Shown: positions 1,530 to 33,980 of the stretch, one piece after another
Layout of the letters: every line of letters starts with the position of its first letter
Numbering within the stretch: the first letter of the stretch is position 1
The notes under the pieces: generated by a model
Databases searched by the model: none
Told to the model about the DNA's origin: nothing
What the model saw: only the letters and a program-made list of their open reading frames with translations
Position numbers and translations under genes: made by a program
IMG/VR virus record: IMGVR_UViG_3300009502_000025
Location: 1-64,000 of that record
Length of the DNA: 64,000 bases
Strand: one strand, 5' to 3'
From: a virus

Positions 1530-2060
1530 AAAATTGTCTATCACAGTGACGCTCCGACCGTGCAGGAAGGAGATGATGGTTTCCCCATAAGGAAGGCCCA
1601 GCCAAAGTAGCTCTTCTGCAAAATGGTTCACCGTGATAGATTGTTTTAAGTTGGAGATTTTACATCGAAGCCTAGGCTAACGCCCATCAGGCAGAGCGAT
1701 CTGATTTTGACGAATCGACGTCAAGAGCTTTGGTGCGAAATCTTCAAACTAGGTCCCCGTTACACTTGCTGTGGTTACACTTGCTGTGTGGCGGAGAGCA
1801 GGACTAATCACCCTGGGGCCTGGGAGGCTGATTACCTCATGAAGCGGTCTTGGTTTCCCACTTCCCGTTCTGCGCAGAAGAATGGAAAGTGGCTGAAAAT
1901 ACTTTGAGGCTTAGTAATCTTGTTGTGTATATCGGTACCGTAGTGCACGACCGGGTGATAGGTGGAAATGCTGAGAAGTCGACCAGCCTAAGCCTCTGAG
2001 TATTTTCAAAGGGTAAGACGTAAAGGAGGTATCCGGGTTCAAATCCCGGGGAATAACACA
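1530..2060 (+). ncRNA. Large structured RNA candidate beside tRNA genes
   Basis: About 530 bases hold no credible gene but many long complementary pairs: 1537-1549 with 1628-1640 (12 of 13 pairs); 1561-1570 with 1611-1620; 1651-1661 with 1737-1747 (11 pairs including two G-U); a hairpin around 1710-1735; 1801-1810 with 1829-1836; a hairpin at 1858-1892; and 1895-1914 with 1988-2007 (19 of 20 pairs). It ends in a perfect T-arm-like hairpin at 2033-2049. Giant phage RNAs such as GOLLD and ROOL are known to lie next to tRNA genes, so this is a candidate of that kind. The class is not proven. Strand is taken from the flanking genes and tRNAs. Confidence 0.6.
1759..1788 (+). repeat. Perfect tandem duplication of a 15-base unit
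   Basis: GTTACACTTGCTGTG occurs twice in a row with no mismatch (1759-1773 and 1774-1788), inside the structured RNA candidate and between two of its hairpins. It may be a recent duplication of a structural element. Confidence 0.9.
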
Positions 2061-2061
2061 T

Positions 2062-2149
2062 AGGGGAGATTAGTGTAAGGGCAGCACGGAGGATTATGGC
2101 CTGTCTAGACGTCCACCTCCAGAGCCGGTTCGAATCCGGCACTCCCACA
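2062..2149 (+). tRNA. tRNA-like gene with a disturbed anticodon arm
   Basis: A canonical T arm is present (GCCGG-TTCGAAT-CCGGC, 2124-2140), as is a D arm (GTGT with GCAC around 2072-2087) with a GG-containing loop. The acceptor pairs GGGAG with CTCCC, but the ends are imperfect. Between the D and T arms there are 36 bases rather than about 23. The best stem there is GGAGG with CCTCC closing a 23-base loop, so no normal seven-base anticodon loop is visible. It could be a decayed tRNA, a tRNA with an insertion in the anticodon loop, or a tRNA mimic. No CCA is encoded. Confidence 0.4.
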
Positions 2150-2243: not shown

Positions 2244-2314
2244 ATTCGCTTATTGTTAATGGTAGCAAACCTCCGGTTCAGGGGGTAGAGCAGGTTCGAT
2301 TCCTGCAGCGAATA
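2244..2314 (+). tRNA. tRNA gene, anticodon not assignable
   Basis: The acceptor ATTCGCT pairs fully with AGCGAAT. The D stem TTGT pairs with GCAA around a GG-containing loop, and the T arm is GCAGG-TTCGATT-CCTGC. The anticodon stem CCTCC/GGGGG encloses only six bases (GGTTCA), with no T in the place of the usual U33. The length is 71 bases. This is either a tRNA with an unusual loop (reading as Glu UUC or Asn GUU depending on register) or one that has lost function. No CCA is encoded, as with the tRNA-Arg downstream. Confidence 0.6.
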
Positions 2315-2563: not shown

Positions 2564-2573
2564 CATTATTTTT

Positions 2574-2647
2574 GGCCTTATAGTATAACTGGATAGTACG
2601 GCAGTTTCCTAAACTGTCAAGTGGGGGTTCGAGTCCTCTTAGGGCTA
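2574..2647 (+). tRNA. tRNA-Arg (anticodon CCU)
   Basis: All arms fold. The acceptor GGCCTTA pairs with TAGGGCT, the D stem GTAT pairs with GTAC, and the anticodon stem GCAGT/ACTGT has loop TTCCTAA giving CCU. The T arm is GGGGG-TTCGAGT-CCTCT with discriminator A. It would read the rare Arg codon AGG. No CCA is encoded, so the host must add it. Confidence 0.95.
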
Positions 2648-2661
2648 TTTTGGGGGATTTG

Positions 2662-7657: not shown

Positions 7658-7688
7658 AAGGTCCCTAGCAATACTAGGGACCTTTTTT
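7658..7688 (+). terminator. Rho-independent terminator at convergent genes
   Basis: AAGGTCCCTAG at 7658-7668 pairs with CTAGGGACCTT at 7674-7684, then a T run for the plus strand. The same hairpin could slow minus-strand transcription of terL, though it lacks a long T run in that direction. Confidence 0.9.
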
Positions 7689-10600
7689 ATGCTGGTGCTC
7701 CTTCCGAAAGAACAAATCCTATTTTAGATATAAAGGCCTGAGCGCTATCTTTCAATTGTTTGGGAGTCAAAATAATATTATTGTCATCCCACACCTGAGT
7801 TAAACATCGAGGTTCCGTCGCTAATTTCATCCTAGCCAAGTACACTGCCCCGGCTACAGCGTCTGAGACGTCCTTCGCATTTATACCTAAAAGTGAGGTG
7901 TCCCAGTTTGTATCTGCGCCATTGGGATTAATAGTATCTCCTGGAGTATGATCTACTTTTAAAGTCCTTGTTTCCTTTCGCTGGACAATACGTAAGCTAC
8001 GTAAATTATTCTTAAAGAAAATATTACGCCCTATTTTTAAATTACCTTGTTCGATTAATTGAGTCAAGAACAAGTAAGGATCCATAGTCTTATCTACTGA
8101 CAACTGTTCCATCTCTACACCATAACGCTCCAGGAACTGAATATTAGCCTCTGACTGAAAACTATCAAAGGAACCAAATTCTATTGGCATATTGCCTTCA
8201 GATATAAAATCAGTTATGCATTCCTTAATGGAGTCCAGATTAATTCGGCCACCAAAAGGATGGATAGGTATAACAGCATCAATAACATATACGAGATCAG
8301 TTAATAAATCAAAAGCTTTTCCAGTAACTGCAGAGTCATATTTCTTTTCGACATGACAAAAAGCTATGGCTGCCATGTCTCCCGATATAGCTTGGTCAAC
8401 ATGAAATACTCTGGGAATTGTAGGCTTATAGTAGAAGTAATATCTATCACCAGATTTAATGAAGAAGGTATTTTTGACCTGATTCCATATCAATTTCTGC
8501 GGTGCCATTTTAGCATCGGATTTGATACAGGTATAGAGAGATTTTAATTGGTCAAAGAAACAATTCTCTATCTTATCCACTTGATAGAATAATTTATCTA
8601 TGGAGCCTTGAGGAATACCTGCAGTGTTCTTTAAAGCCTCGACTATATTATCCTTAAACAACTGCTCAATCTCTCTGGGCACCATTATAATGTCAGAAGG
8701 GTCGTATCCTTCTGTTGAATATAGTATCTCTGGCGGCTTACCATTACTACCCTTAAATACAGGGAACTTGTCATCTAAGTTTTTAAAGTCCTCAGGGGCC
8801 CATTCCCATCTAGACCCCTTCACTACGTAATTGGTTTTATCTTTGCTCGCTTCAAACATGCAATACTTATCAATAGGAGACTCGAGATCGTTAGGAGAGG
8901 AGTCCAAGATAGACCGGCCCCAGAATTTACCGAGAGGCGTCTTATCCATACGAGAACCAATACGTTCTTTTAATGACGTATAGAATTTCATTATGTATTC
9001 GTCACTGTTGGATGTAACAATAAAGTCATTAGCTAAAAATAGATGATCTTCATCCTCTATAGTGATGCATTGAGTTTCTTCCGACTCAATCTCTTTAATA
9101 GAGGAAAGTCTTAAGATCTGGCGATGACTCCGCTGCTTGCCTCTCCAGTACTCATCTATCCTTTTTTGTTTTCTACTCATCTTGAATAGAGGGATAGAGT
9201 TATCTTTAAAATGAATACAAACATGGTAGCCGTCGAAAAATATCTGCTCTCTTTTCTTTTGCATACTTAAAGTTGCAAAAGCCCCCAAACTTCTAGCTAA
9301 ATATACCACGTCTTCGGCCAAGGTTTTTGATACTGAGGAGAATACACCGCCTCCCTTGTTGACAGATCCATCGGTATCCATTAAGCCCTGCAATAATTCT
9401 ATTCGATTAAGAATGGAATCATATAGATATTCTTTGGGGATAAATTTATCATTGCTTCTCTTGTCGACCAGCCCTAATTTAATTATTTCTTCAGCATACA
9501 AATTTTTAATCTTAGTATTTTTTTCTTTTTTAATTATTCTAATATATCTACTAGGATATCCGCTGAAAGACCAGGTATAGTCTTTATTCAGGTCTTTTGA
9601 TACATTTAAAATACTCTCTTCCCTATCACCGTCAGAGCCCACGGACAAGATAAAAGTATTGTGTCTAAAACTCCCGTCTCCTAAGGCAAACCCCATAATA
9701 TATGGGGCTATGAAGTGACTTTTTTCGTTAAAGGGGGCGGGCTTAGACAGAGGAATACCCCACATATTTTTTAGGTTTGTAGATCCTTCAAATATTTCTT
9801 GAGTTGTTTTTTTATACCAGTATCTATCTTTTTTTATTATCCACTCGTGTTCTGGATTTGCTTTTATTTCTCTTCCATCTGAAAATACTAGTTTAAAGAC
9901 TCTCGTTTTTCCCTGGGGGATTACTCGGGAAACTTTTGAGACAGTACCCTTATGGGTAAGAACACTGTCTCCTACTTGTATATCTCTCATCAATGTAAAT
10001 CCAGACGGAGTGATTACTTCACTATCCATTGATAGTGCTTTGCCTGCCTCCCTGAAGAAGGCTAACTCCGTCATTGTTCCTGCGACAACCGTCAATCCTA
10101 AGAGATTATGTACGGATGATATGAGTTTAATATTTGTATTGTTGCTAAATTGTATAGCTGAAGTACCATTAGGAGAAGCTGTTGTCCAATAGATTCTATC
10201 GATAGAAGTTTTTCGCTGATAATCCTTTTCCATCTTAATCATGTCTTCTTTTGTTCTTACTTTTTCGAAGAAATCAGATACTTCTAGAAGACTTGTAAAT
10301 GGCTCCAAGAGTACTTCTGAGGCCTTCTTCAGGGAGTAAGACGCTAAGACTATAGCTAGCTGAGCAGAGGGTGCCTGAGCGAATGTCCTCTTAGCGTCTC
10401 TCATCATAGAAAGATGTGTTATGATGTATAAGTTTATAAGAACGGCGAGGGTAGAGTTATGTGTTACGGTATAATCGTCGACAAGAAATAGTTTTTCGTC
10501 TCCGCTTACCTCTATGCACAGACCCTCATCGTTAGGAGTTCGCTCAATCTTTTTTAGATAAAGATACATAGGCTTTCTTTTAATTCGGCTTCTATTGAAG

Positions 10601-11928
10601 TGATTGTCGATCAGTATTTGCTTTCTAAGAAGTGAGAAGATAGGAAAACTATTAGTTGGAAAAGTAATAAAAATTACATACCCCTCTTTTCCATTTTCAC
10701 AGTGGGGCCGCTTTCTGCTGTCTACATGATATGAAGATTTGCCTCCGAGGCCTCGAACCAAAGTAAGCATATTATCTCTTAAAAAGGGACTGGTAGTATA
10801 ATAAGAGGCGAGTCCTGATCTCTTCGACACAGTTCCATCTGTGTCCATCAGACCTTGTAATAGTGCTATTCTATTGGCTAGGCTATCATACAAGTATTCT
10901 TCGGGAATAAACTTAGTATGACTTCGAGTACGCCTCAAATCCAATCTCTCTAGTTCTACTTTATAAAGATTCAGAGTAGATTTTTCCTGAACCAAAGTTG
11001 TTATATAATTACAAGACGCATTAGGTCGCGTGTGAGTAAAAACTCCCTCAGGCACTTCAGATTTGATTCTAGAATGGATTTCCAGGTCATCCCCACAAAG
11101 AAATAGCGTGTTACCAAAATGACCGCCACCGAGGAGTGCTCCTAGGGTGTAAGAAGGTATGACGTGAATCCGCTGCTTATGTTCTACAGGATTCGTGAGA
11201 GGAATAAACCACCGTGCCTTGGGATTTTTTTCAATATCTTTTAGGATTTCACGAGATGATATTATTTTCCAACAAGGTTCCGGATACGCTGTTTTTATAT
11301 ATTTTTTTTGAGATGAGTCCCATCTCTTTGTATTATATGATTTTGCGGCTTTCCAATAGTGATCCAGTCCCGATGAGACCGATCGCCCATCTGCAAACTG
11401 CATATCGCAGAACTCATCATTAGACCAAGTCGCCCTGTTTATAACTCGGGCGATGTCGCCAGCAGGGGTACAAACTTCATCTCCCACACGTATATCATCT
11501 GCGATCTTATAGCCCTCAGGAGTACAAATCTTTGTCTTATAACGATTTATTTCTTTCCCCCAACCGATGTGAGGATACAAGACAGCATTTCTATATGAAG
11601 ATTTAGGGTCCAAGAATTCTTGGAAGCATCTACTGATCTTAGGTTGTACCATAGGAGCCATTCTACCGATATACTTATCGGTAAGAAATTCCTCTGGCGC
11701 TGGTGGCCTATCTCTATAATTGATTCTCCAACTATTAGACATCAGGTATAACTTTTGCTGATTTGATAATTTGGGGTTATTTAGTATAAAATCTAAAGCT
11801 AATCCTATTTTCCTAAGATCCACGTTTTCAAATACTTGGTATTTATCAAGTAAACTAGTATCTCCAGATATAACATCTATTAAAACAGGAATGAGTTCTT
11901 TTTTATTGGTAATACGAGAAGCTTCCAT
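7687..11928 (-). CDS. terL: Terminase large subunit carrying two inteins
   Basis: Removing the two inteins leaves about 703 residues. Walker A is split as GWGK (122-125) and STLAVL (492 on) by intein 1. A Walker B-like TELAFF lies at 620-625, just before intein 2 (631-974). The C-terminal part carries an RNase H-like nuclease with three Asp motifs: FHVDQAISGD, FGSFDSFQSE and KDVSDAVAGA. Terminase pumps and cuts DNA into the prohead. Both inteins must leave for ATPase activity. ACTAATTA-type sequence lies in the divergent region upstream. No small terminase gene is visible beside it. Confidence 0.93.
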   Translation of the reverse strand: MEASRITNKKELIPVLIDVISGDTSLLDKYQVFENVDLRKIGLALDFILNNPKLSNQQKLYLMSNSWRINYRDRPPAPEEFLTDKYIGRMAPMVQPKISRCFQEFLDPKSSYRNAVLYPHIGWGKEINRYKTKICTPEGYKIADDIRVGDEVCTPAGDIARVINRATWSNDEFCDMQFADGRSVSSGLDHYWKAAKSYNTKRWDSSQKKYIKTAYPEPCWKIISSREILKDIEKNPKARWFIPLTNPVEHKQRIHVIPSYTLGALLGGGHFGNTLFLCGDDLEIHSRIKSEVPEGVFTHTRPNASCNYITTLVQEKSTLNLYKVELERLDLRRTRSHTKFIPEEYLYDSLANRIALLQGLMDTDGTVSKRSGLASYYTTSPFLRDNMLTLVRGLGGKSSYHVDSRKRPHCENGKEGYVIFITFPTNSFPIFSLLRKQILIDNHFNRSRIKRKPMYLYLKKIERTPNDEGLCIEVSGDEKLFLVDDYTVTHNSTLAVLINLYIITHLSMMRDAKRTFAQAPSAQLAIVLASYSLKKASEVLLEPFTSLLEVSDFFEKVRTKEDMIKMEKDYQRKTSIDRIYWTTASPNGTSAIQFSNNTNIKLISSVHNLLGLTVVAGTMTELAFFREAGKALSMDSEVITPSGFTLMRDIQVGDSVLTHKGTVSKVSRVIPQGKTRVFKLVFSDGREIKANPEHEWIIKKDRYWYKKTTQEIFEGSTNLKNMWGIPLSKPAPFNEKSHFIAPYIMGFALGDGSFRHNTFILSVGSDGDREESILNVSKDLNKDYTWSFSGYPSRYIRIIKKEKNTKIKNLYAEEIIKLGLVDKRSNDKFIPKEYLYDSILNRIELLQGLMDTDGSVNKGGGVFSSVSKTLAEDVVYLARSLGAFATLSMQKKREQIFFDGYHVCIHFKDNSIPLFKMSRKQKRIDEYWRGKQRSHRQILRLSSIKEIESEETQCITIEDEDHLFLANDFIVTSNSDEYIMKFYTSLKERIGSRMDKTPLGKFWGRSILDSSPNDLESPIDKYCMFEASKDKTNYVVKGSRWEWAPEDFKNLDDKFPVFKGSNGKPPEILYSTEGYDPSDIIMVPREIEQLFKDNIVEALKNTAGIPQGSIDKLFYQVDKIENCFFDQLKSLYTCIKSDAKMAPQKLIWNQVKNTFFIKSGDRYYFYYKPTIPRVFHVDQAISGDMAAIAFCHVEKKYDSAVTGKAFDLLTDLVYVIDAVIPIHPFGGRINLDSIKECITDFISEGNMPIEFGSFDSFQSEANIQFLERYGVEMEQLSVDKTMDPYLFLTQLIEQGNLKIGRNIFFKNNLRSLRIVQRKETRTLKVDHTPGDTINPNGADTNWDTSLLGINAKDVSDAVAGAVYLARMKLATEPRCLTQVWDDNNIILTPKQLKDSAQAFISKIGFVLSEGAPA
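9007..10038 (-). mobile_element. Intein 2 of terminase with LAGLIDADG endonuclease
   Basis: Residues 631-974 of the terminase ORF (344 residues). It begins ALSMDSEVITPSGFTLMRDI, a Hint-domain start with Ala in place of Cys at position 1, and ends VTSN before Ser+1, with Ser rather than His at the penultimate place. Two LAGLIDADG motifs (MGFALGDG at 745-752 and LLQGLMDTDG near 846-854) keep both acidic residues, so the homing endonuclease may be active. Ala at position 1 implies the class of inteins that skip the first acyl shift. Confidence 0.9.
10456..11553 (-). mobile_element. Intein 1 of terminase, endonuclease probably inactive
   Basis: Residues 126-491 of the terminase ORF (366 residues), inserted in the Walker A loop between GWGK and ST. 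Hint motifs are seen in TKICTPEGYKIADDIRVGD and the C-terminal VTHN before Ser+1. If Walker A is to be restored exactly, the first intein residue is Glu126, which is not a usual intein nucleophile. The first LAGLIDADG motif reads LGALLGGG (262-269), with Gly268 where intein 2 has Asp751. The second motif (LLQGLMDTDG) is intact. It is clearly a paralogue of intein 2. Confidence 0.88.
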
Positions 11929-29710: not shown

Positions 29711-30187
29711 ATGACGACTTCAAGAGGTTTCAGGGTGCGTGGAGATGACATTTTATTTCCATTGCAGGAGGTTGCAGAGACAATGAGCGGATGGTTCGAT
29801 TTGCTTAGTGGTTGGGAGGCGCCGGTTTCCAAGCTTCCTCATTCCTTGGCTACAGGATCTTCGTTCCCGCCTTGCAACTGGTATTCAGATGAACAAAATA
29901 ATCTATATTATGAGTTCGCTGTGGCAGGCTTCAGTAAGGATGAAATCAATCTTTCGTTAAACGACGATCTGTTGATTCTAACAATCATTCCACTACCTGC
30001 AAAAGAAAAGGACACTAGAAAGCAACTACAGAAAGGCATCAAGCGATGTGAGTCTGTGAGCCAGTACAGAATTCCACTATCTAAGTACAATCTACAGAAG
30101 GTAGAATCAAAGCTAGAAAACGGAATTTTGTCCGTTATGATTCCTGCAAAGGAAGACACAAAGCCGATTAAAATAAATATCGGTTAA
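29711..30187 (+). CDS. Small heat-shock protein (Hsp20 family)
   Basis: The alpha-crystallin fold is visible: EFAVAGFSKDEINLSLNDDL (residues 73-92), LTIIPLP, then YRIPLSKYNLQKVESKLENGILSVMIP (117-143), and the ENGILSV strand is diagnostic. The N-terminal 60 residues are variable, as is normal. These chaperones hold unfolding proteins without ATP. T4-like phages of cyanobacteria also carry one. The ribosome site is AAAGGAGAAGG. Confidence 0.92.
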   Translation: MTTSRGFRVRGDDILFPLQEVAETMSGWFDLLSGWEAPVSKLPHSLATGSSFPPCNWYSDEQNNLYYEFAVAGFSKDEINLSLNDDLLILTIIPLPAKEKDTRKQLQKGIKRCESVSQYRIPLSKYNLQKVESKLENGILSVMIPAKEDTKPIKINIG

Positions 30188-30188
30188 A

Positions 30189-30220
30189 AAGAAAGCCACT
30201 CTGAAAAGAGTGGCTTTTAT
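30189..30220. terminator. Bidirectional terminator
   Basis: AAAGCCACTCT at 30192-30202 pairs with AGAGTGGCTTT at 30207-30217, with T-rich tails in both directions. It lies between the convergent Hsp20 and lipase genes. Confidence 0.93.
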
Positions 30221-30225
30221 TTTGC

Positions 30226-30933
30226 TTAAATTATTACTGCGATATCATCGGGATAATTGCGATAAGCGTGATCTCCGAATAATTCTACGTCATGCATGTC
30301 TCTCGGTTGCCTTCTCAAGGCCCACCAGATAGCTAAAAGAGTGTTGCCCAGTACCTGCAGTACTTTTCTTGGGCCAAAATGAAGCATTTGGATACCTTTA
30401 TATCCGAATAGCCTGGGCGGTACAAAGTGAACAATATCAGCACCATAATATATAGCTAAGAATCTCACTCTCTTCTCAAAGCTCTTAACAAAAGCCGCGT
30501 TGCCTACCCTCGGGGAAGAGCCTGGCAAGCAAAATATACTACATCCATCAAAATTATACTGCACGTCTAGGCTACATATAGTTGCCAAGGCGCCACCATA
30601 CGAATGGCCGGTGACGACGACAGTACCTGCTGGTTTTCTATCGTAGAATTCTCGAGCCCGATTGAGAATCACATCTCTCACGCCACTCTGCTTGTATTGA
30701 TCTAACCAACCGAAATGAATGCGAACTTTTGAGTCCGTATTATCATAAGGTATAACTGCGGTATCGAAAAGCATATGATTCCACCAATCTAATGTTGAAT
30801 CAGATGATCTGAATACTACAAAAAGGGATTCCTCGTCCTCTTTAAAAATAGCCTGTACGGTACCTTTATCAATGTCGGCCCTATCCGAAGACTCCGCAAA
30901 TAATTCTTTGAAAAACTTCAGATCATATGTCAT
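30226..30933 (-). CDS. Class 3 lipase (alpha/beta hydrolase)
   Basis: I start at the Met followed by TYDLKFFKEL because GGGGAT precedes it; the frame is open 16 codons further. The nucleophile elbow GHSYGGA is near residue 104, with VVFRSSDSTLDW before it, PRVGNAAF after it, and GDHAYRNYPD near the end for the catalytic His. The family cleaves acylglycerols or phospholipids. There is no signal peptide, so it works inside the cell or is released at lysis. It is unusual in a phage replication region. Confidence 0.85.
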   Translation of the reverse strand: MTYDLKFFKELFAESSDRADIDKGTVQAIFKEDEESLFVVFRSSDSTLDWWNHMLFDTAVIPYDNTDSKVRIHFGWLDQYKQSGVRDVILNRAREFYDRKPAGTVVVTGHSYGGALATICSLDVQYNFDGCSIFCLPGSSPRVGNAAFVKSFEKRVRFLAIYYGADIVHFVPPRLFGYKGIQMLHFGPRKVLQVLGNTLLAIWWALRRQPRDMHDVELFGDHAYRNYPDDIAVII

Positions 30934-30993: not shown

Positions 30994-31257
30994 ATGATGG
31001 CAATTACACTACACGACTGGAAGACTATTCGAGAACTGAGACTATGTACTGCTGCTGGTTTATTAAATCCCATGGAATTCAAGATACTGCTAGCTCCTAT
31101 GGTTTTTTTGGATCAAGGAGACGCGGGCGATGATGAAGAGGATAGTATTGCTGACGACCTACGACAAATAAAAAAGAATAAAAAAAGCTCCTCTGAAAAA
31201 GAGGAGCTTCCACCTGCTATAGGCTTTCATGTAGACTCAGAGGAAGAGGACGACTAA
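30994..31257 (+). CDS. Hypothetical acidic protein, 87 residues, coding over an opposing terminator
   Basis: AAAGGAGCTTCCCA precedes an ATGATG start. The product has a helical start and an acidic end with a KKNKKSSSEKEEL segment coded by a hairpin that is the terminator of the opposite operon. The gene end overlaps the nrdJ stop by four bases. Function unknown. Confidence 0.65.
   Translation: MMAITLHDWKTIRELRLCTAAGLLNPMEFKILLAPMVFLDQGDAGDDEEDSIADDLRQIKKNKKSSSEKEELPPAIGFHVDSEEEDD
31182..31210 (-). terminator. Terminator of the nrdJ operon inside an opposing gene
   Basis: On the minus strand AAGCTCCTCT pairs with AGAGGAGCTT and is followed by TTTTTATTC. It lies 45 bases past the nrdJ stop, wholly inside the plus-strand 87-residue gene. 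Confidence 0.9.
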
Positions 31258-32846
31258 CATTTTGACCATCCACACATACACGTGACACATCCCTCTTTAT
31301 ACATAAAGCCATCTTTACTACCACAAGAGGGACATTCCATAGATGTCTTTACTTGCTCGCCGTTCTTGATGTATCCTTTAAGAACTCTCGCTAAGGATTT
31401 TGACCAGGAACCGAAACCATCGCTTTTACCTAGCTGTTCAACGATGAACTCGATAGGTGTTCCGTGCCTCAGAGCTGTACTCAGTAGACGCGTTGGTCCT
31501 TCGTACTCGTGATTGAATGTTTGGGCAATATTCTCAATTACGACCTTATCTACTCCGTTAGGAATAATGAGGTCGTAATTGCCTTTGCCCTTCTTACGAA
31601 TGATACCTGTGTCTTTATCCTTTAGATAACTCCATTCTTCTCTTTGTTCAGATATGAATGTCTCATATATGGATCCGCTGTACTTGCCGATTAGAGTTAG
31701 AAACTTTTGTCCCTTAATAGAAGTGACATAAATATCACACTCCAAGTCCTTAGGTCTTTTTGGCGCACCAGACCTCTCAATGTACTCAGGTCTCTTATAG
31801 CATACTTCTTTCTTCACTGGCTTAGTAGATAATATTCCCTTCATACTTCCCTGTGGATTAAATGAAGTGAATCCTTTTAAGCCTTGCTTATAAGCAAACA
31901 TGAAAAGATCTTTATAGGCCTCCAAAGTATATCCTTCGGGTAGGTTAGCTGTCTTAGATATAGAGTGATCTATGTATTTTTGAAAAGCAGCCTGTACTCT
32001 TACCCCATCATAAGGATTCACTTCATTTGAAGTTATGAAGTACTCGGGAATTTTAGGTTCAAGCCCCGTCGATGTCATATGTGCTTTTGTATCATCGTAA
32101 GGGGTGTGAAGATATTCTAGCCAGGCCTTATCATACACAGTTTCTTTACGAGTCTCGTCTCCTTTTCCCGTCCTGATAGTTCTATCATACTGGAGAGCAA
32201 AGATGGGCTCAATACCTGAAGAGCAATTATTACCAACTGTCAATGAAATTGTTCCTGTTGGCGCACAAGTTAATATACCTATGTTCCTTAGACCACTTGC
32301 CCATATATCTTCATATAATTCCTCGGGGAGTGAGGTAATAAAAGAAGACTGATTAAGTCTTTTATCAAATGCAGGAAAGGTACCCTTTTCTCTCGCTAAC
32401 TCAGCAGATTCACTGTATGCTTCGTCACGGAGTATTCTACCTATTCCGTCTGCAAGATCTATACTTTCTTGGCTACCGTATTTTATTTTCATCATGGCAC
32501 AGACGTCACCAAAACCCGTGAAGCCTAGTCCTATCCGCCTCCACTGTTTGGAAAAATCTTCTATCCTCTTAAGAGGATATTTAGTTACATCTAAAACGTC
32601 ATCAAGAAATCTAACTGCTGTGCGAATAGTTTTCGATAGAAGATCCTGATTAATCATCGGGGAATCTCCAAAAGCCCCTGTCACAAAGGAAGGTAGGTTT
32701 AAGGATCCTAGACAGCATAAACTATATGCTGGCATCGAAATTTCGCCACAATTTTTAATAACAGTGCCATTTGCATAAAAATTATGAGTATTCTCCACTG
32801 TTATATCATATACATCTTCGTTATCAGATGTTTCTATAATTAGCAT
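31254..32846 (-). CDS. nrdJ: Class II ribonucleotide reductase, C-terminal half with split-intein C fragment
   Basis: The first 32 residues are the intein C fragment (ending NGTVIKN). The extein starts CGEISMPAYSLCCLGSLNL; this Cys is the catalytic thiyl-radical cysteine of the NPCGE loop. Further motifs: APTGTISLTVGNNCSSGIEP (class II signature), and a C-terminal CPSCG...CMCGWSKC redox/zinc tail. The enzyme makes deoxynucleotides with adenosylcobalamin. An AGAGGAG site precedes the ATG. The product is useless until spliced to the N-terminal half. Confidence 0.93.
   Translation of the reverse strand: MLIIETSDNEDVYDITVENTHNFYANGTVIKNCGEISMPAYSLCCLGSLNLPSFVTGAFGDSPMINQDLLSKTIRTAVRFLDDVLDVTKYPLKRIEDFSKQWRRIGLGFTGFGDVCAMMKIKYGSQESIDLADGIGRILRDEAYSESAELAREKGTFPAFDKRLNQSSFITSLPEELYEDIWASGLRNIGILTCAPTGTISLTVGNNCSSGIEPIFALQYDRTIRTGKGDETRKETVYDKAWLEYLHTPYDDTKAHMTSTGLEPKIPEYFITSNEVNPYDGVRVQAAFQKYIDHSISKTANLPEGYTLEAYKDLFMFAYKQGLKGFTSFNPQGSMKGILSTKPVKKEVCYKRPEYIERSGAPKRPKDLECDIYVTSIKGQKFLTLIGKYSGSIYETFISEQREEWSYLKDKDTGIIRKKGKGNYDLIIPNGVDKVVIENIAQTFNHEYEGPTRLLSTALRHGTPIEFIVEQLGKSDGFGSWSKSLARVLKGYIKNGEQVKTSMECPSCGSKDGFMYKEGCVTCMCGWSKC
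32751..32846 (-). mobile_element. Split intein C fragment (IntC) of nrdJ
   Basis: 32 residues: MLIIETSDNEDVYDITVENT then HNFYANGTVIKN. DVYDITVENTHNFYANG is the standard intein block F, and the final Asn precedes Cys+1. The penultimate residue is Lys instead of the usual His. It pairs with the fragment at 32877-33191. Confidence 0.92.
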
Positions 32847-32873
32847 TTTTAAACGTCTCCTCTGTTAATTCCT

Positions 32874-33980
32874 CTAGTCATGGATTAACTCATCAGTTGG
32901 TTGAAGGTGCTGTGCTTCTACCCATCCTCTATTTTTTGTAAGTATTTTGTGATCCGGAGTACATTTGATCTGATTGCCAGTGGAGGTATCTGTTATCCTG
33001 ATTATTTTCGTATTTTTTCTAGTGAGAAGAGCATTTGTTACTTTTTGGTATTCAGTTTGACGAGTCTCTTCGTTGAGAGACTTCGCAAATACTTCTTCCC
33101 CAGAAACTACCAATTCTACTAAGTCCTTCATTCTTATTTTTTGATTTACGCCCTTGAAAGAAATATCTACAACGGTATCTCCTGTTACGCAAGGATTGAC
33201 CGAATCTATATTAAAGGCGTACCAGCCGTTGTTATACCTATTTACTGTATCAATATTAAAGATGCCTGGTTCATTGTGCTCGAAGGCATTCTTGGCCAGG
33301 AGATCATAAAGATACTTAGCTTTAACTATTTTATAAACTTGCCCTTCCCAAACAAGAGGCCATTCACTATCTTCTTCTACAGCCCTGATAAATTCGTCTG
33401 TGAGAACTACAGAGAGGTTGAATTGGTCTAAAGCTTTTTTCTCGTCTCCGTGTTTTACTGTAATGAACTCTTCGATGTCAGGGTGATCTATGTTCATCAG
33501 AGCAATATGAGCAGATCGACGACCTCCTCCAGTCTGTATGACTTTTGCAGACTCGTTGAATATTTTAAGGAAAGAAATAGGCCCGGATGACTTGCCTCCC
33601 TTTTTAATAGCAGCATCTTTAGGTCTCAAGTACGAAATATTAAAGCCAACGCCTCCCCCTGAAGCACTGATCATGGCATCATCGTGGAGAGCTCCGAAAA
33701 TGCCCTCCATGCTATCTCCAACAGCTATAGTATAACAATTATTATAGTACTTCATTTTAGAATCCGGACGAGCATTAGCTAGGATTCTTCCACCGGGGAT
33801 AAATAAGCCTTTTTCCATAATGTCAAGAAATTCGTGTTCCCACTGAGCTCTTACTTTCGGTTTTTCAGCCATCGCTATTTCAGTCGCAACACCCCTAAAT
33901 ACATCCTCAGGGGTTTTTTCGCCGTTAATCATATACTTCTGGCGAAAGATTTCTTCGGAGATAGATTGAGAGAACATCAT
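32874..33980 (-). CDS. nrdJ: Class II ribonucleotide reductase, N-terminal half with split-intein N fragment
   Basis: Residues 1-263 are the reductase N-terminal part: PGGRILANA, NNCYTIAVGDSMEGIF, SASGGGVGFNISYLRP and DSVNP. Residue 264 begins the intein N fragment. The extein breaks inside the NPCGE loop, right before the active-site Cys. An AAGGAAGG site precedes an ATGATG start, and ACTAATTA lies 31 bases upstream. The two halves are adjacent, in order and co-oriented, separated by only 27 bases. Confidence 0.93.
   Translation of the reverse strand: MMFSQSISEEIFRQKYMINGEKTPEDVFRGVATEIAMAEKPKVRAQWEHEFLDIMEKGLFIPGGRILANARPDSKMKYYNNCYTIAVGDSMEGIFGALHDDAMISASGGGVGFNISYLRPKDAAIKKGGKSSGPISFLKIFNESAKVIQTGGGRRSAHIALMNIDHPDIEEFITVKHGDEKKALDQFNLSVVLTDEFIRAVEEDSEWPLVWEGQVYKIVKAKYLYDLLAKNAFEHNEPGIFNIDTVNRYNNGWYAFNIDSVNPCVTGDTVVDISFKGVNQKIRMKDLVELVVSGEEVFAKSLNEETRQTEYQKVTNALLTRKNTKIIRITDTSTGNQIKCTPDHKILTKNRGWVEAQHLQPTDELIHD
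32877..33191 (-). mobile_element. Split intein N fragment (IntN) of nrdJ
   Basis: 105 residues from Cys264 (CVTGDTVVDISF) to the stop. Block A and block B are present: IKCTPDHKILTKNRGWVEAQ and LQPTDELI. The length and site match my memory of the NrdJ-1 split intein reported from metagenomes. There is no homing endonuclease; the break is where one would sit. Confidence 0.92.

What the first reader, a model, noticed from the sequence alone, without database searches (positions are those of the whole stretch)
1530..2060. A roughly 530-nt highly structured RNA beside phage tRNA genes
Seven or more long helices can be read by eye, the longest pairing 1895-1914 with 1988-2007 at 19 of 20 positions, and no credible protein frame covers the area. 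Giant ornate RNAs (GOLLD, ROOL and relatives) are found in phages next to tRNAs, and this fits in size and place. It may be a member or a new class.
Basis: partly seen in the sequence, partly recalled or inferred. Interest (0 to 1): 0.85.

Follow-up and report, generated by a model that had tools for sequence, protein, structure and literature searches.

The report
Structured phage RNA with tRNA-like tail
At one end of a large set of unusual transfer-RNA genes, an uncultured phage encodes a roughly 530-letter RNA that is strongly predicted to fold, ends in a genuine piece of a transfer RNA, and resembles no RNA family on record, but no relative was found that could confirm the fold or show what it does.

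Summary
Window 1530-2060 (+) folds at -201.9 kcal/mol, z = -6.3; each of its three parts is significant alone (z -3.7, -4.2, -5.9). The long helix 1895-1914/1988-2007 is 19 of 20 paired, and no credible protein frame covers it. Rfam 15 shows no GOLLD, ROOL, RNase P, tmRNA or intron match, even at E up to 5. It has no matching tRNA 5' half, whereas nearly every other T-arm tested in the array does. The RNA lies at the 3' end of a 24-kb, ~35-gene tRNA array in which several tRNAs carry insertions. A distant relative has a similar array but no recognisable copy; no homologue was found, so covariation cannot be tested. Best reading: an orphan, tRNA-processed structural phage RNA of the GOLLD/ROOL kind, not a member of either. 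Its function is inferred only.

The parts
1530..1647 (+). Domain A: long irregular hairpin, base AAAAT/GTTTT, GTCTATCAC/GTGATAGAT
   Evidence: pairing probability 0.87-0.99 for the basal helices; z -3.65 alone
1651..1747 (+). Domain B: hairpin TTGGAGATTTT/GAAATCTTCAA then CATCGAAGC/GCTTTGGTG with a small multiloop
   Evidence: pairing probability 0.93-1.0; 1649-1830 z -4.18
1749..1823 (+). Domain C: three-way junction closed by CTAGGTCC/GGGCCTGG, holding hairpin 1757-1794 (tandem GTTACACTTGCTGTG copies) and 17-nt hairpin 1799-1815; alternative pairing 1811-1818/2044-2051 is nearly isoenergetic
   Evidence: constrained and unconstrained folds, -199.6 vs -202.2 kcal/mol
1833..2031 (+). Domain D: 199-nt compound helix (TACCTC/GAGGTA base; 1894-1914/1988-2008 long helix; side hairpins 1858-1892 and 1917-1956), in the position of a class-II tRNA variable arm
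   Evidence: z -5.91 with the 3' tail; the model of 1833-2050 picks up variable arm plus T-arm of ordinary tRNAs
1957..1987 (+). Large purine-rich, mostly unpaired stretch inside domain D (candidate tertiary or ligand site)
   Evidence: low pairing probability 0.23-0.54
2022..2030 (+). AAAGGAGGT, full complement of the 16S anti-Shine-Dalgarno; only copy in the window's + strand; partly held in the basal helix of domain D
   Evidence: sequence
2033..2049 (+). Canonical tRNA T-arm CCGGG-TTCAAAT-CCCGG
   Evidence: sequence; outside the tRNA array only one, A/T-rich, match to the same consensus in the region scanned
2050..2063 (+). Single-stranded tail GGAATAACACATAG, ends at the 5' end of the next tRNA; first 7 nt would be an acceptor 3' strand, but no convincing 5' partner exists
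2063..2148 (+). tRNA with a 16-nt insert in the anticodon loop (read as Ile-UAU); an RNase P cut at its 5' end would make the 3' end of the long RNA
   Evidence: Rfam tRNA 31.9 bits; ARAGORN intron mode
2244..2314 (+). tRNA with an 8-nt anticodon loop
   Evidence: Rfam tRNA 36.9 bits; ARAGORN relaxed
2573..2648 (+). tRNA-Arg(CCT), ordinary

Best explanation
A long (about 530 nt) structured non-coding RNA encoded on the + strand of a phage tRNA array. SHOWN: strong predicted multi-domain fold; a real tRNA T-arm at its 3' end, placed against a 199-nt helix just as a class-II variable arm sits against a T-arm; tRNA genes follow at once; no coding frame; no known family. INFERRED: it is transcribed with its neighbours (it starts 5 nt after a small ORF; the nearest copy of the phage's repeated promoter-like motif is at 683), and its 3' end is made by RNase P cutting before the tRNA at 2063/2064, leaving the T-arm domain as a stable cap. 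It then accumulates during infection as an architectural RNA in the manner of GOLLD/ROOL (self-assembly or ribosome/tRNA association), rather than as a messenger, intron or ribozyme. The T-arm was probably taken from a tRNA of the array whose 5' half was lost.
For: Fold z -6.3 on + and -3.1 on -; three independently significant parts; T-arm fits for only 2.6 of 202 kcal/mol; T-arm consensus otherwise found in tRNAs or array orphans, with one A/T-rich exception; 11 of 13 other T-arms rank their own 5' acceptor strand first, one more ties for first, one (the tRNA at 2063) ranks it third, and this T-arm has none of comparable score; the model of domain D plus T-arm aligns to variable arm plus T-arm of tRNAs; at 3' end of an array of about 35 tRNAs; GOLLD and ROOL, encoded in phages near tRNA islands, form RNA-only nanocages, and GOLLD is reported to bind ribosomes in pull-downs (PMC12286853); tRNA-linked lncRNAs of staphylococcal kayvirus phage K are abundantly transcribed (PMC9241854).
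Against: No homologue, so no covariation; the two contigs carrying it are identical over 1261 nt and may not be independent. No expression data. The 400-nt tile is only 4th of 159 in the window. A relative phage (DNA polymerase about 32-35% identical) with a homologous array lacks a detectable copy. No oligomer contacts or pseudoknots could be demonstrated; the best loop-loop match is 5 bp.
Confidence: 0.5

Rival explanations
1. An overgrown (insertion-bearing) tRNA: a real class-II-type tRNA gene whose D, anticodon and variable arms carry large structured inserts, the extreme case of what is seen elsewhere in the same array; either trimmed to a tRNA or no longer charged.
For: Same array holds tRNAs with 43-44-nt inserts in the anticodon arm, a 16-nt insert in the anticodon loop, and about 200 nt between acceptor strand and T-arm; topology acceptor-B-C-D-T is tRNA-like if 1641-1647 TTGTTTT pairs with 2050-2056 GGAATAA (7/7, three G-U).
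Against: The acceptor match is weak (score 10.1 against 14-18 for most others) and competes with domain A; no D-arm and no clean anticodon arm; Rfam tRNA model finds nothing in 1530-2060 at E up to 5.
Confidence: 0.2
2. A decayed group I-type intron or other mobile insertion in a tRNA gene, now without its 5' exon.
For: Another tRNA of the array is interrupted by about 700 nt holding a putative homing-endonuclease ORF; group I introns in tRNA genes are known in bacteria, and they also occur in phages (PMC3984707, abstract).
Against: No Intron_gpI or group II match on either strand at E up to 5; no 5' exon in 6 kb upstream; no endonuclease in it.
Confidence: 0.08
3. A cis-acting leader or spacer: structure that steers processing or transcription of the tRNA operon, not a stable RNA of its own.
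For: Directly upstream of tRNAs with no promoter-like site of its own found on the + strand before it; long structured spacers also lie between tRNAs of the relative (L138:13045-13556, z -3.3).
Against: 531 nt and four domains are far more than an attenuator needs; no terminator found directly after it.
Confidence: 0.17
4. A protein gene or folding artefact of base composition.
For: 103-aa minus-strand and 66-aa plus-strand ORFs exist.
Against: No Pfam match, overlap with a tRNA gene; z -6.3 against dinucleotide shuffles.
Confidence: 0.05

Closest known systems
ROOL RNA
   Same: Phage-encoded, non-coding, elaborately folded, often near tRNA islands (PMC12286853); length of the same order
   Different: No Rfam match; ends in a tRNA T-arm; no homologues found; oligomerisation untested
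GOLLD RNA
   Same: Phage-encoded, near tRNAs; some members carry tRNAs within the RNA (PMC12286853)
   Different: Shorter (531 nt against many above 800); no Rfam match; here only a tRNA 3' part, at the 3' end
lncRNAs of staphylococcal phage K (Kayvirus) and the ~800-nt RNA of vibriophage ICP1
   Same: Large non-coding phage RNAs, those of phage K beside tRNAs and abundantly transcribed (PMC9241854, PMC7567579)
   Different: No blastn similarity in the phage collection
Class II tRNA (Ser/Leu/Tyr) 3' half
   Same: Helix one base before a canonical T-arm
   Different: Arm is 199 nt instead of about 15; no acceptor partner, D-arm or anticodon arm identified

Membership tests
GOLLD | Match to the Rfam covariance model | tested here: not met
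   No match at gathering or E up to 5 with relaxed filters
GOLLD | Phage or prophage locus near tRNAs | tested here: met
GOLLD | Conserved 3' domain and closed oligomeric cage | not testable with these tools
   no homologues; needs biochemistry
ROOL | Match to the Rfam covariance model | tested here: not met
ROOL | Multiple pseudoknots | tested here: inconclusive
   only a 5-bp loop-loop match found; not resolvable from one sequence
tRNA | Canonical T-arm | tested here: met
   2033-2049
tRNA | Acceptor 5' strand followed by D-arm | tested here: not met
   6 kb upstream scanned; 11 of 13 control T-arms recover their partner at first rank, this one has none of comparable score
tmRNA | Rfam/ARAGORN tmRNA match | tested here: not met
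   only low-threshold permuted calls with no known tag, which also appear elsewhere in the stretch
RNase P RNA | Rfam match | tested here: not met
Group I intron | Rfam match and flanking exons | tested here: not met
Structured RNA family in general | Compensatory changes across homologues | not testable with these tools
   no diverged homologue found

The most novel reading that the evidence does not exclude
The RNA is a tRNA mimic built as a counter-defence: a class-II-like variable arm enlarged to 199 nt and stacked on a true T-arm, serving as a decoy or resistant substrate for host nucleases that cut the variable loop of tRNAs (Septu and retron-Eco7 cut tRNA-Tyr there; phage T5 tRNA-Tyr resists through its own variable loop, PMC13096335), in an array whose other tRNAs are also altered at the anticodon arm.
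Probability: 0.07. Interest if true: 0.9.

Novelty: new variant of a known kind. Interest (0 to 1): 0.55.

Why it matters
Large ornate phage RNAs beside tRNA genes are abundant and structurally striking but have no known function. An unrelated one that ends in a tRNA T-arm would suggest that such RNAs arise within tRNA arrays and use tRNA processing, and it gives a sequence on which nanocage formation, ribosome binding and tRNA mimicry can be tested directly. The array around it, with altered tRNAs partly conserved between distant phages, is a lead of its own.

Tried and rejected
Rfam at gathering and at E up to 5. blastn in phages and plasmids. Relatives through the neighbouring 157-aa and 133-aa ORFs: only the identical contig, or unrelated phages sharing one protein. 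Relatives through DNA polymerase alone, then through an alignment: G027, G028 and G029 found (32-35% identity in the best segment), but no copy by blastn, by models R1/R2 or in array-to-array comparison. Cellular genomes through the polymerase returned only cellular PolA-like hits. Exact 16-19-mers from internal loops in IMG/VR: besides the identical contig, ten loci that gave no significant match to either model. A 21-nt resemblance of 1962-1982 to L138:17404 (16 of 21) is about what chance gives and was not used. tmRNA and permuted-tmRNA readings rejected. Recoding of TAG, suggested by an amber-suppressor tRNA, was not supported by ORF lengths. A cloverleaf inside domain B and an anticodon arm in domain C (CAGGA-CTAATCA-CCCTG, 4 of 5 pairs) were considered too weak. 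The first script on the array gave no output because of a file name and was repeated.

Full report
WHAT IS THERE. Window 1530-2060 on the + strand folds at -201.9 kcal/mol; shuffles with the same dinucleotides average -161.0 (sd 6.5), z -6.29, none of 100 as good; the reverse strand gives z -3.1. Folded apart, 1530-1648, 1649-1830 and 1831-2062 have z -3.65, -4.18 and -5.91, so the signal is not due to a single hairpin. As a control, 159 tiles of 400 nt over the window average z -0.74 (sd 1.41); the tile here is 4th, so the fold is strong but not unique in this genome.

ARCHITECTURE. Four domains follow one another: A 1530-1647, B 1651-1747, C 1749-1823, D 1833-2031, then a T-arm 2033-2049 and a 14-nt tail up to the tRNA at 2063/2064. 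The unconstrained fold dissolves the T-arm in favour of 1811-1818/2044-2051, but enforcing the T-arm costs only 2.6 kcal/mol of 202 and lets domain C close. The T-arm is CCGGG-TTCAAAT-CCCGG. A scan of about 103 kb finds this consensus with five perfect pairs in tRNAs or array orphans, apart from one A/T-rich site, so it is a tRNA piece, not chance. Domain D ends one base before it, as a class-II variable arm does; accordingly a covariance model of 1833-2050 finds the variable arm plus T-arm of ordinary tRNAs (best E 0.04).

NOT A WHOLE tRNA. I asked for each T-arm of the array whether the 7 nt after it find their acceptor 5' strand upstream. Of 13 tested, 11 find their own partner at first rank, including the gene with the 43-nt insert, the gene whose two halves lie about 200 nt apart and the gene with an ORF of more than 600 nt between its halves; one more ties for first, and the tRNA at 2063 itself ranks its own strand third. 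The T-arm at 2033 finds only candidates inside a coding frame 700 nt away or the weak TTGTTTT at 1641-1647 (four A-U, three G-U); no convincing D-arm follows any candidate. The 1641 option would give a tRNA-like order of arms with every arm overgrown, and is kept as a rival.

SURROUNDINGS. The window is part of a 94-kb IMG/VR record; a 170.6-kb contig (G001) is identical over the 1261 nt compared. On G001, Rfam and ARAGORN together give about 35 tRNA genes between 71.4 and 95.8 kb, including an amber suppressor; the long RNA lies close to the 3' end of that array, with three tRNAs after it. Several tRNAs are unusual: 43- and 44-nt inserts in anticodon arms, a 16-nt insert in the anticodon loop just downstream of the long RNA, an 8-nt anticodon loop, one tRNA split by an ORF that looks like a homing endonuclease, one whose acceptor strand and T-arm lie about 200 nt apart. 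The phage is remote from named phages (best DNA polymerase matches about 22-26% identical among the hits listed). Its nearest IMG/VR relatives, G027-G029, have polymerases 32-35% identical in the best segment. G028 has a homologous array, with related inserts and a conserved odd tRNA-like gene, but no copy of the long RNA. It does have a non-coding 512-nt spacer between tRNAs with z -3.3, without sequence similarity.

WHAT IT MOST LIKELY IS. Shown: a significantly structured, non-coding stretch with a tRNA 3' domain, inside a phage tRNA array, matching no Rfam family. Inferred: co-transcription with the small ORFs and tRNAs (the nearest copy of the repeated promoter-like motif is at 683; no sigma-70-like site on the + strand directly before it); 3' end made by RNase P at 2063/2064; a stable architectural role of the GOLLD/ROOL type. 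Those RNAs are encoded in phages near tRNA islands, form homo-oligomeric cages and, for GOLLD, are reported to bind ribosomes (PMC12286853). The only copy of AAAGGAGGT on the window's + strand, a full anti-Shine-Dalgarno complement, lies in it at 2022-2030; this makes ribosome contact testable but is no proof.

COMPARISON AND NOVELTY. It works, at most, like GOLLD/ROOL; it is not a member of either by the only test available, the covariance models. It is not tmRNA, RNase P RNA or a recognisable intron. What is new is the combination of a large ornate phage RNA with a bona fide tRNA T-arm as its 3' domain. Because no diverged homologue was found, the secondary structure rests on thermodynamics alone and 'new class' is not established.

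SIDE RESULT. Inserts of 43-46 nt with a hairpin and an A-rich, CAGCGAG-like tail occur in tRNA anticodon arms of both G001 and G028. In one G001 gene removing 43 nt restores a perfect anticodon arm CGAGC-CTATTAA-GCTCG, but the short arm can also form with the insert left in place, so splicing is not implied.

Noticed in passing
L038:7774-7891 and L038:1156-1274 (G001); L138:16199-16320 and L138:17222-17340 (G028): Related 43-46-nt inserts (hairpin plus A-rich tail, ACAGCGAGTAA in G028) inside tRNA anticodon arms, shared by two phages with about 32% identical polymerases; no known RNA family.
   Followed up: partly
window 2063-2148 and 2244-2314: tRNA with a 16-nt insert in the anticodon loop (GGAGGATTATG also reads as a strong ribosome site plus start) and a tRNA with an 8-nt anticodon loop.
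   Followed up: partly
L038:8015-8825: tRNA gene split by about 700 nt that hold an ORF resembling a homing endonuclease (8081-8702); its family was not tested with a profile.
   Followed up: partly
L038:2758-2996: tRNA whose acceptor strand TGTTCTG and T-arm lie about 200 nt apart; by eye the extra stretch holds a second cloverleaf with anticodon CTG, as if one tRNA gene were nested in another.
   Followed up: partly
L038:3983-4060 and L138:15978-16054: Odd tRNA-like gene lacking a D-arm, with TATCCCCTCACTCTGATAAGGTGT.GAAAGGGTA conserved between the two phages (80% over 85 nt).
   Followed up: no
L138:13045-13556: 512-nt non-coding, significantly structured spacer (z -3.3) between tRNAs of the relative phage; its first 110 nt look like a tRNA-Tyr with an unusual T-arm.
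   Followed up: partly
window 31254-33980 (-): Ribonucleotide reductase in two ORFs, the junction with intein-like matches: probably a split intein.
   Followed up: no
window 7687-11928 (-): 1413-aa helicase/terminase-like protein with a segment matching unrelated phage profiles at about 623-990, probably an intein.
   Followed up: no
window 147, 683, 14813, 37649 (+): Repeated motif CTTATATTATATA before genes, more often than expected (14 vs 4.4 with up to 2 mismatches): likely the phage's promoter.
   Followed up: partly
window 30001-30400: Most strongly folding 400-nt tile of the window (z -6.0); not examined.
   Followed up: no
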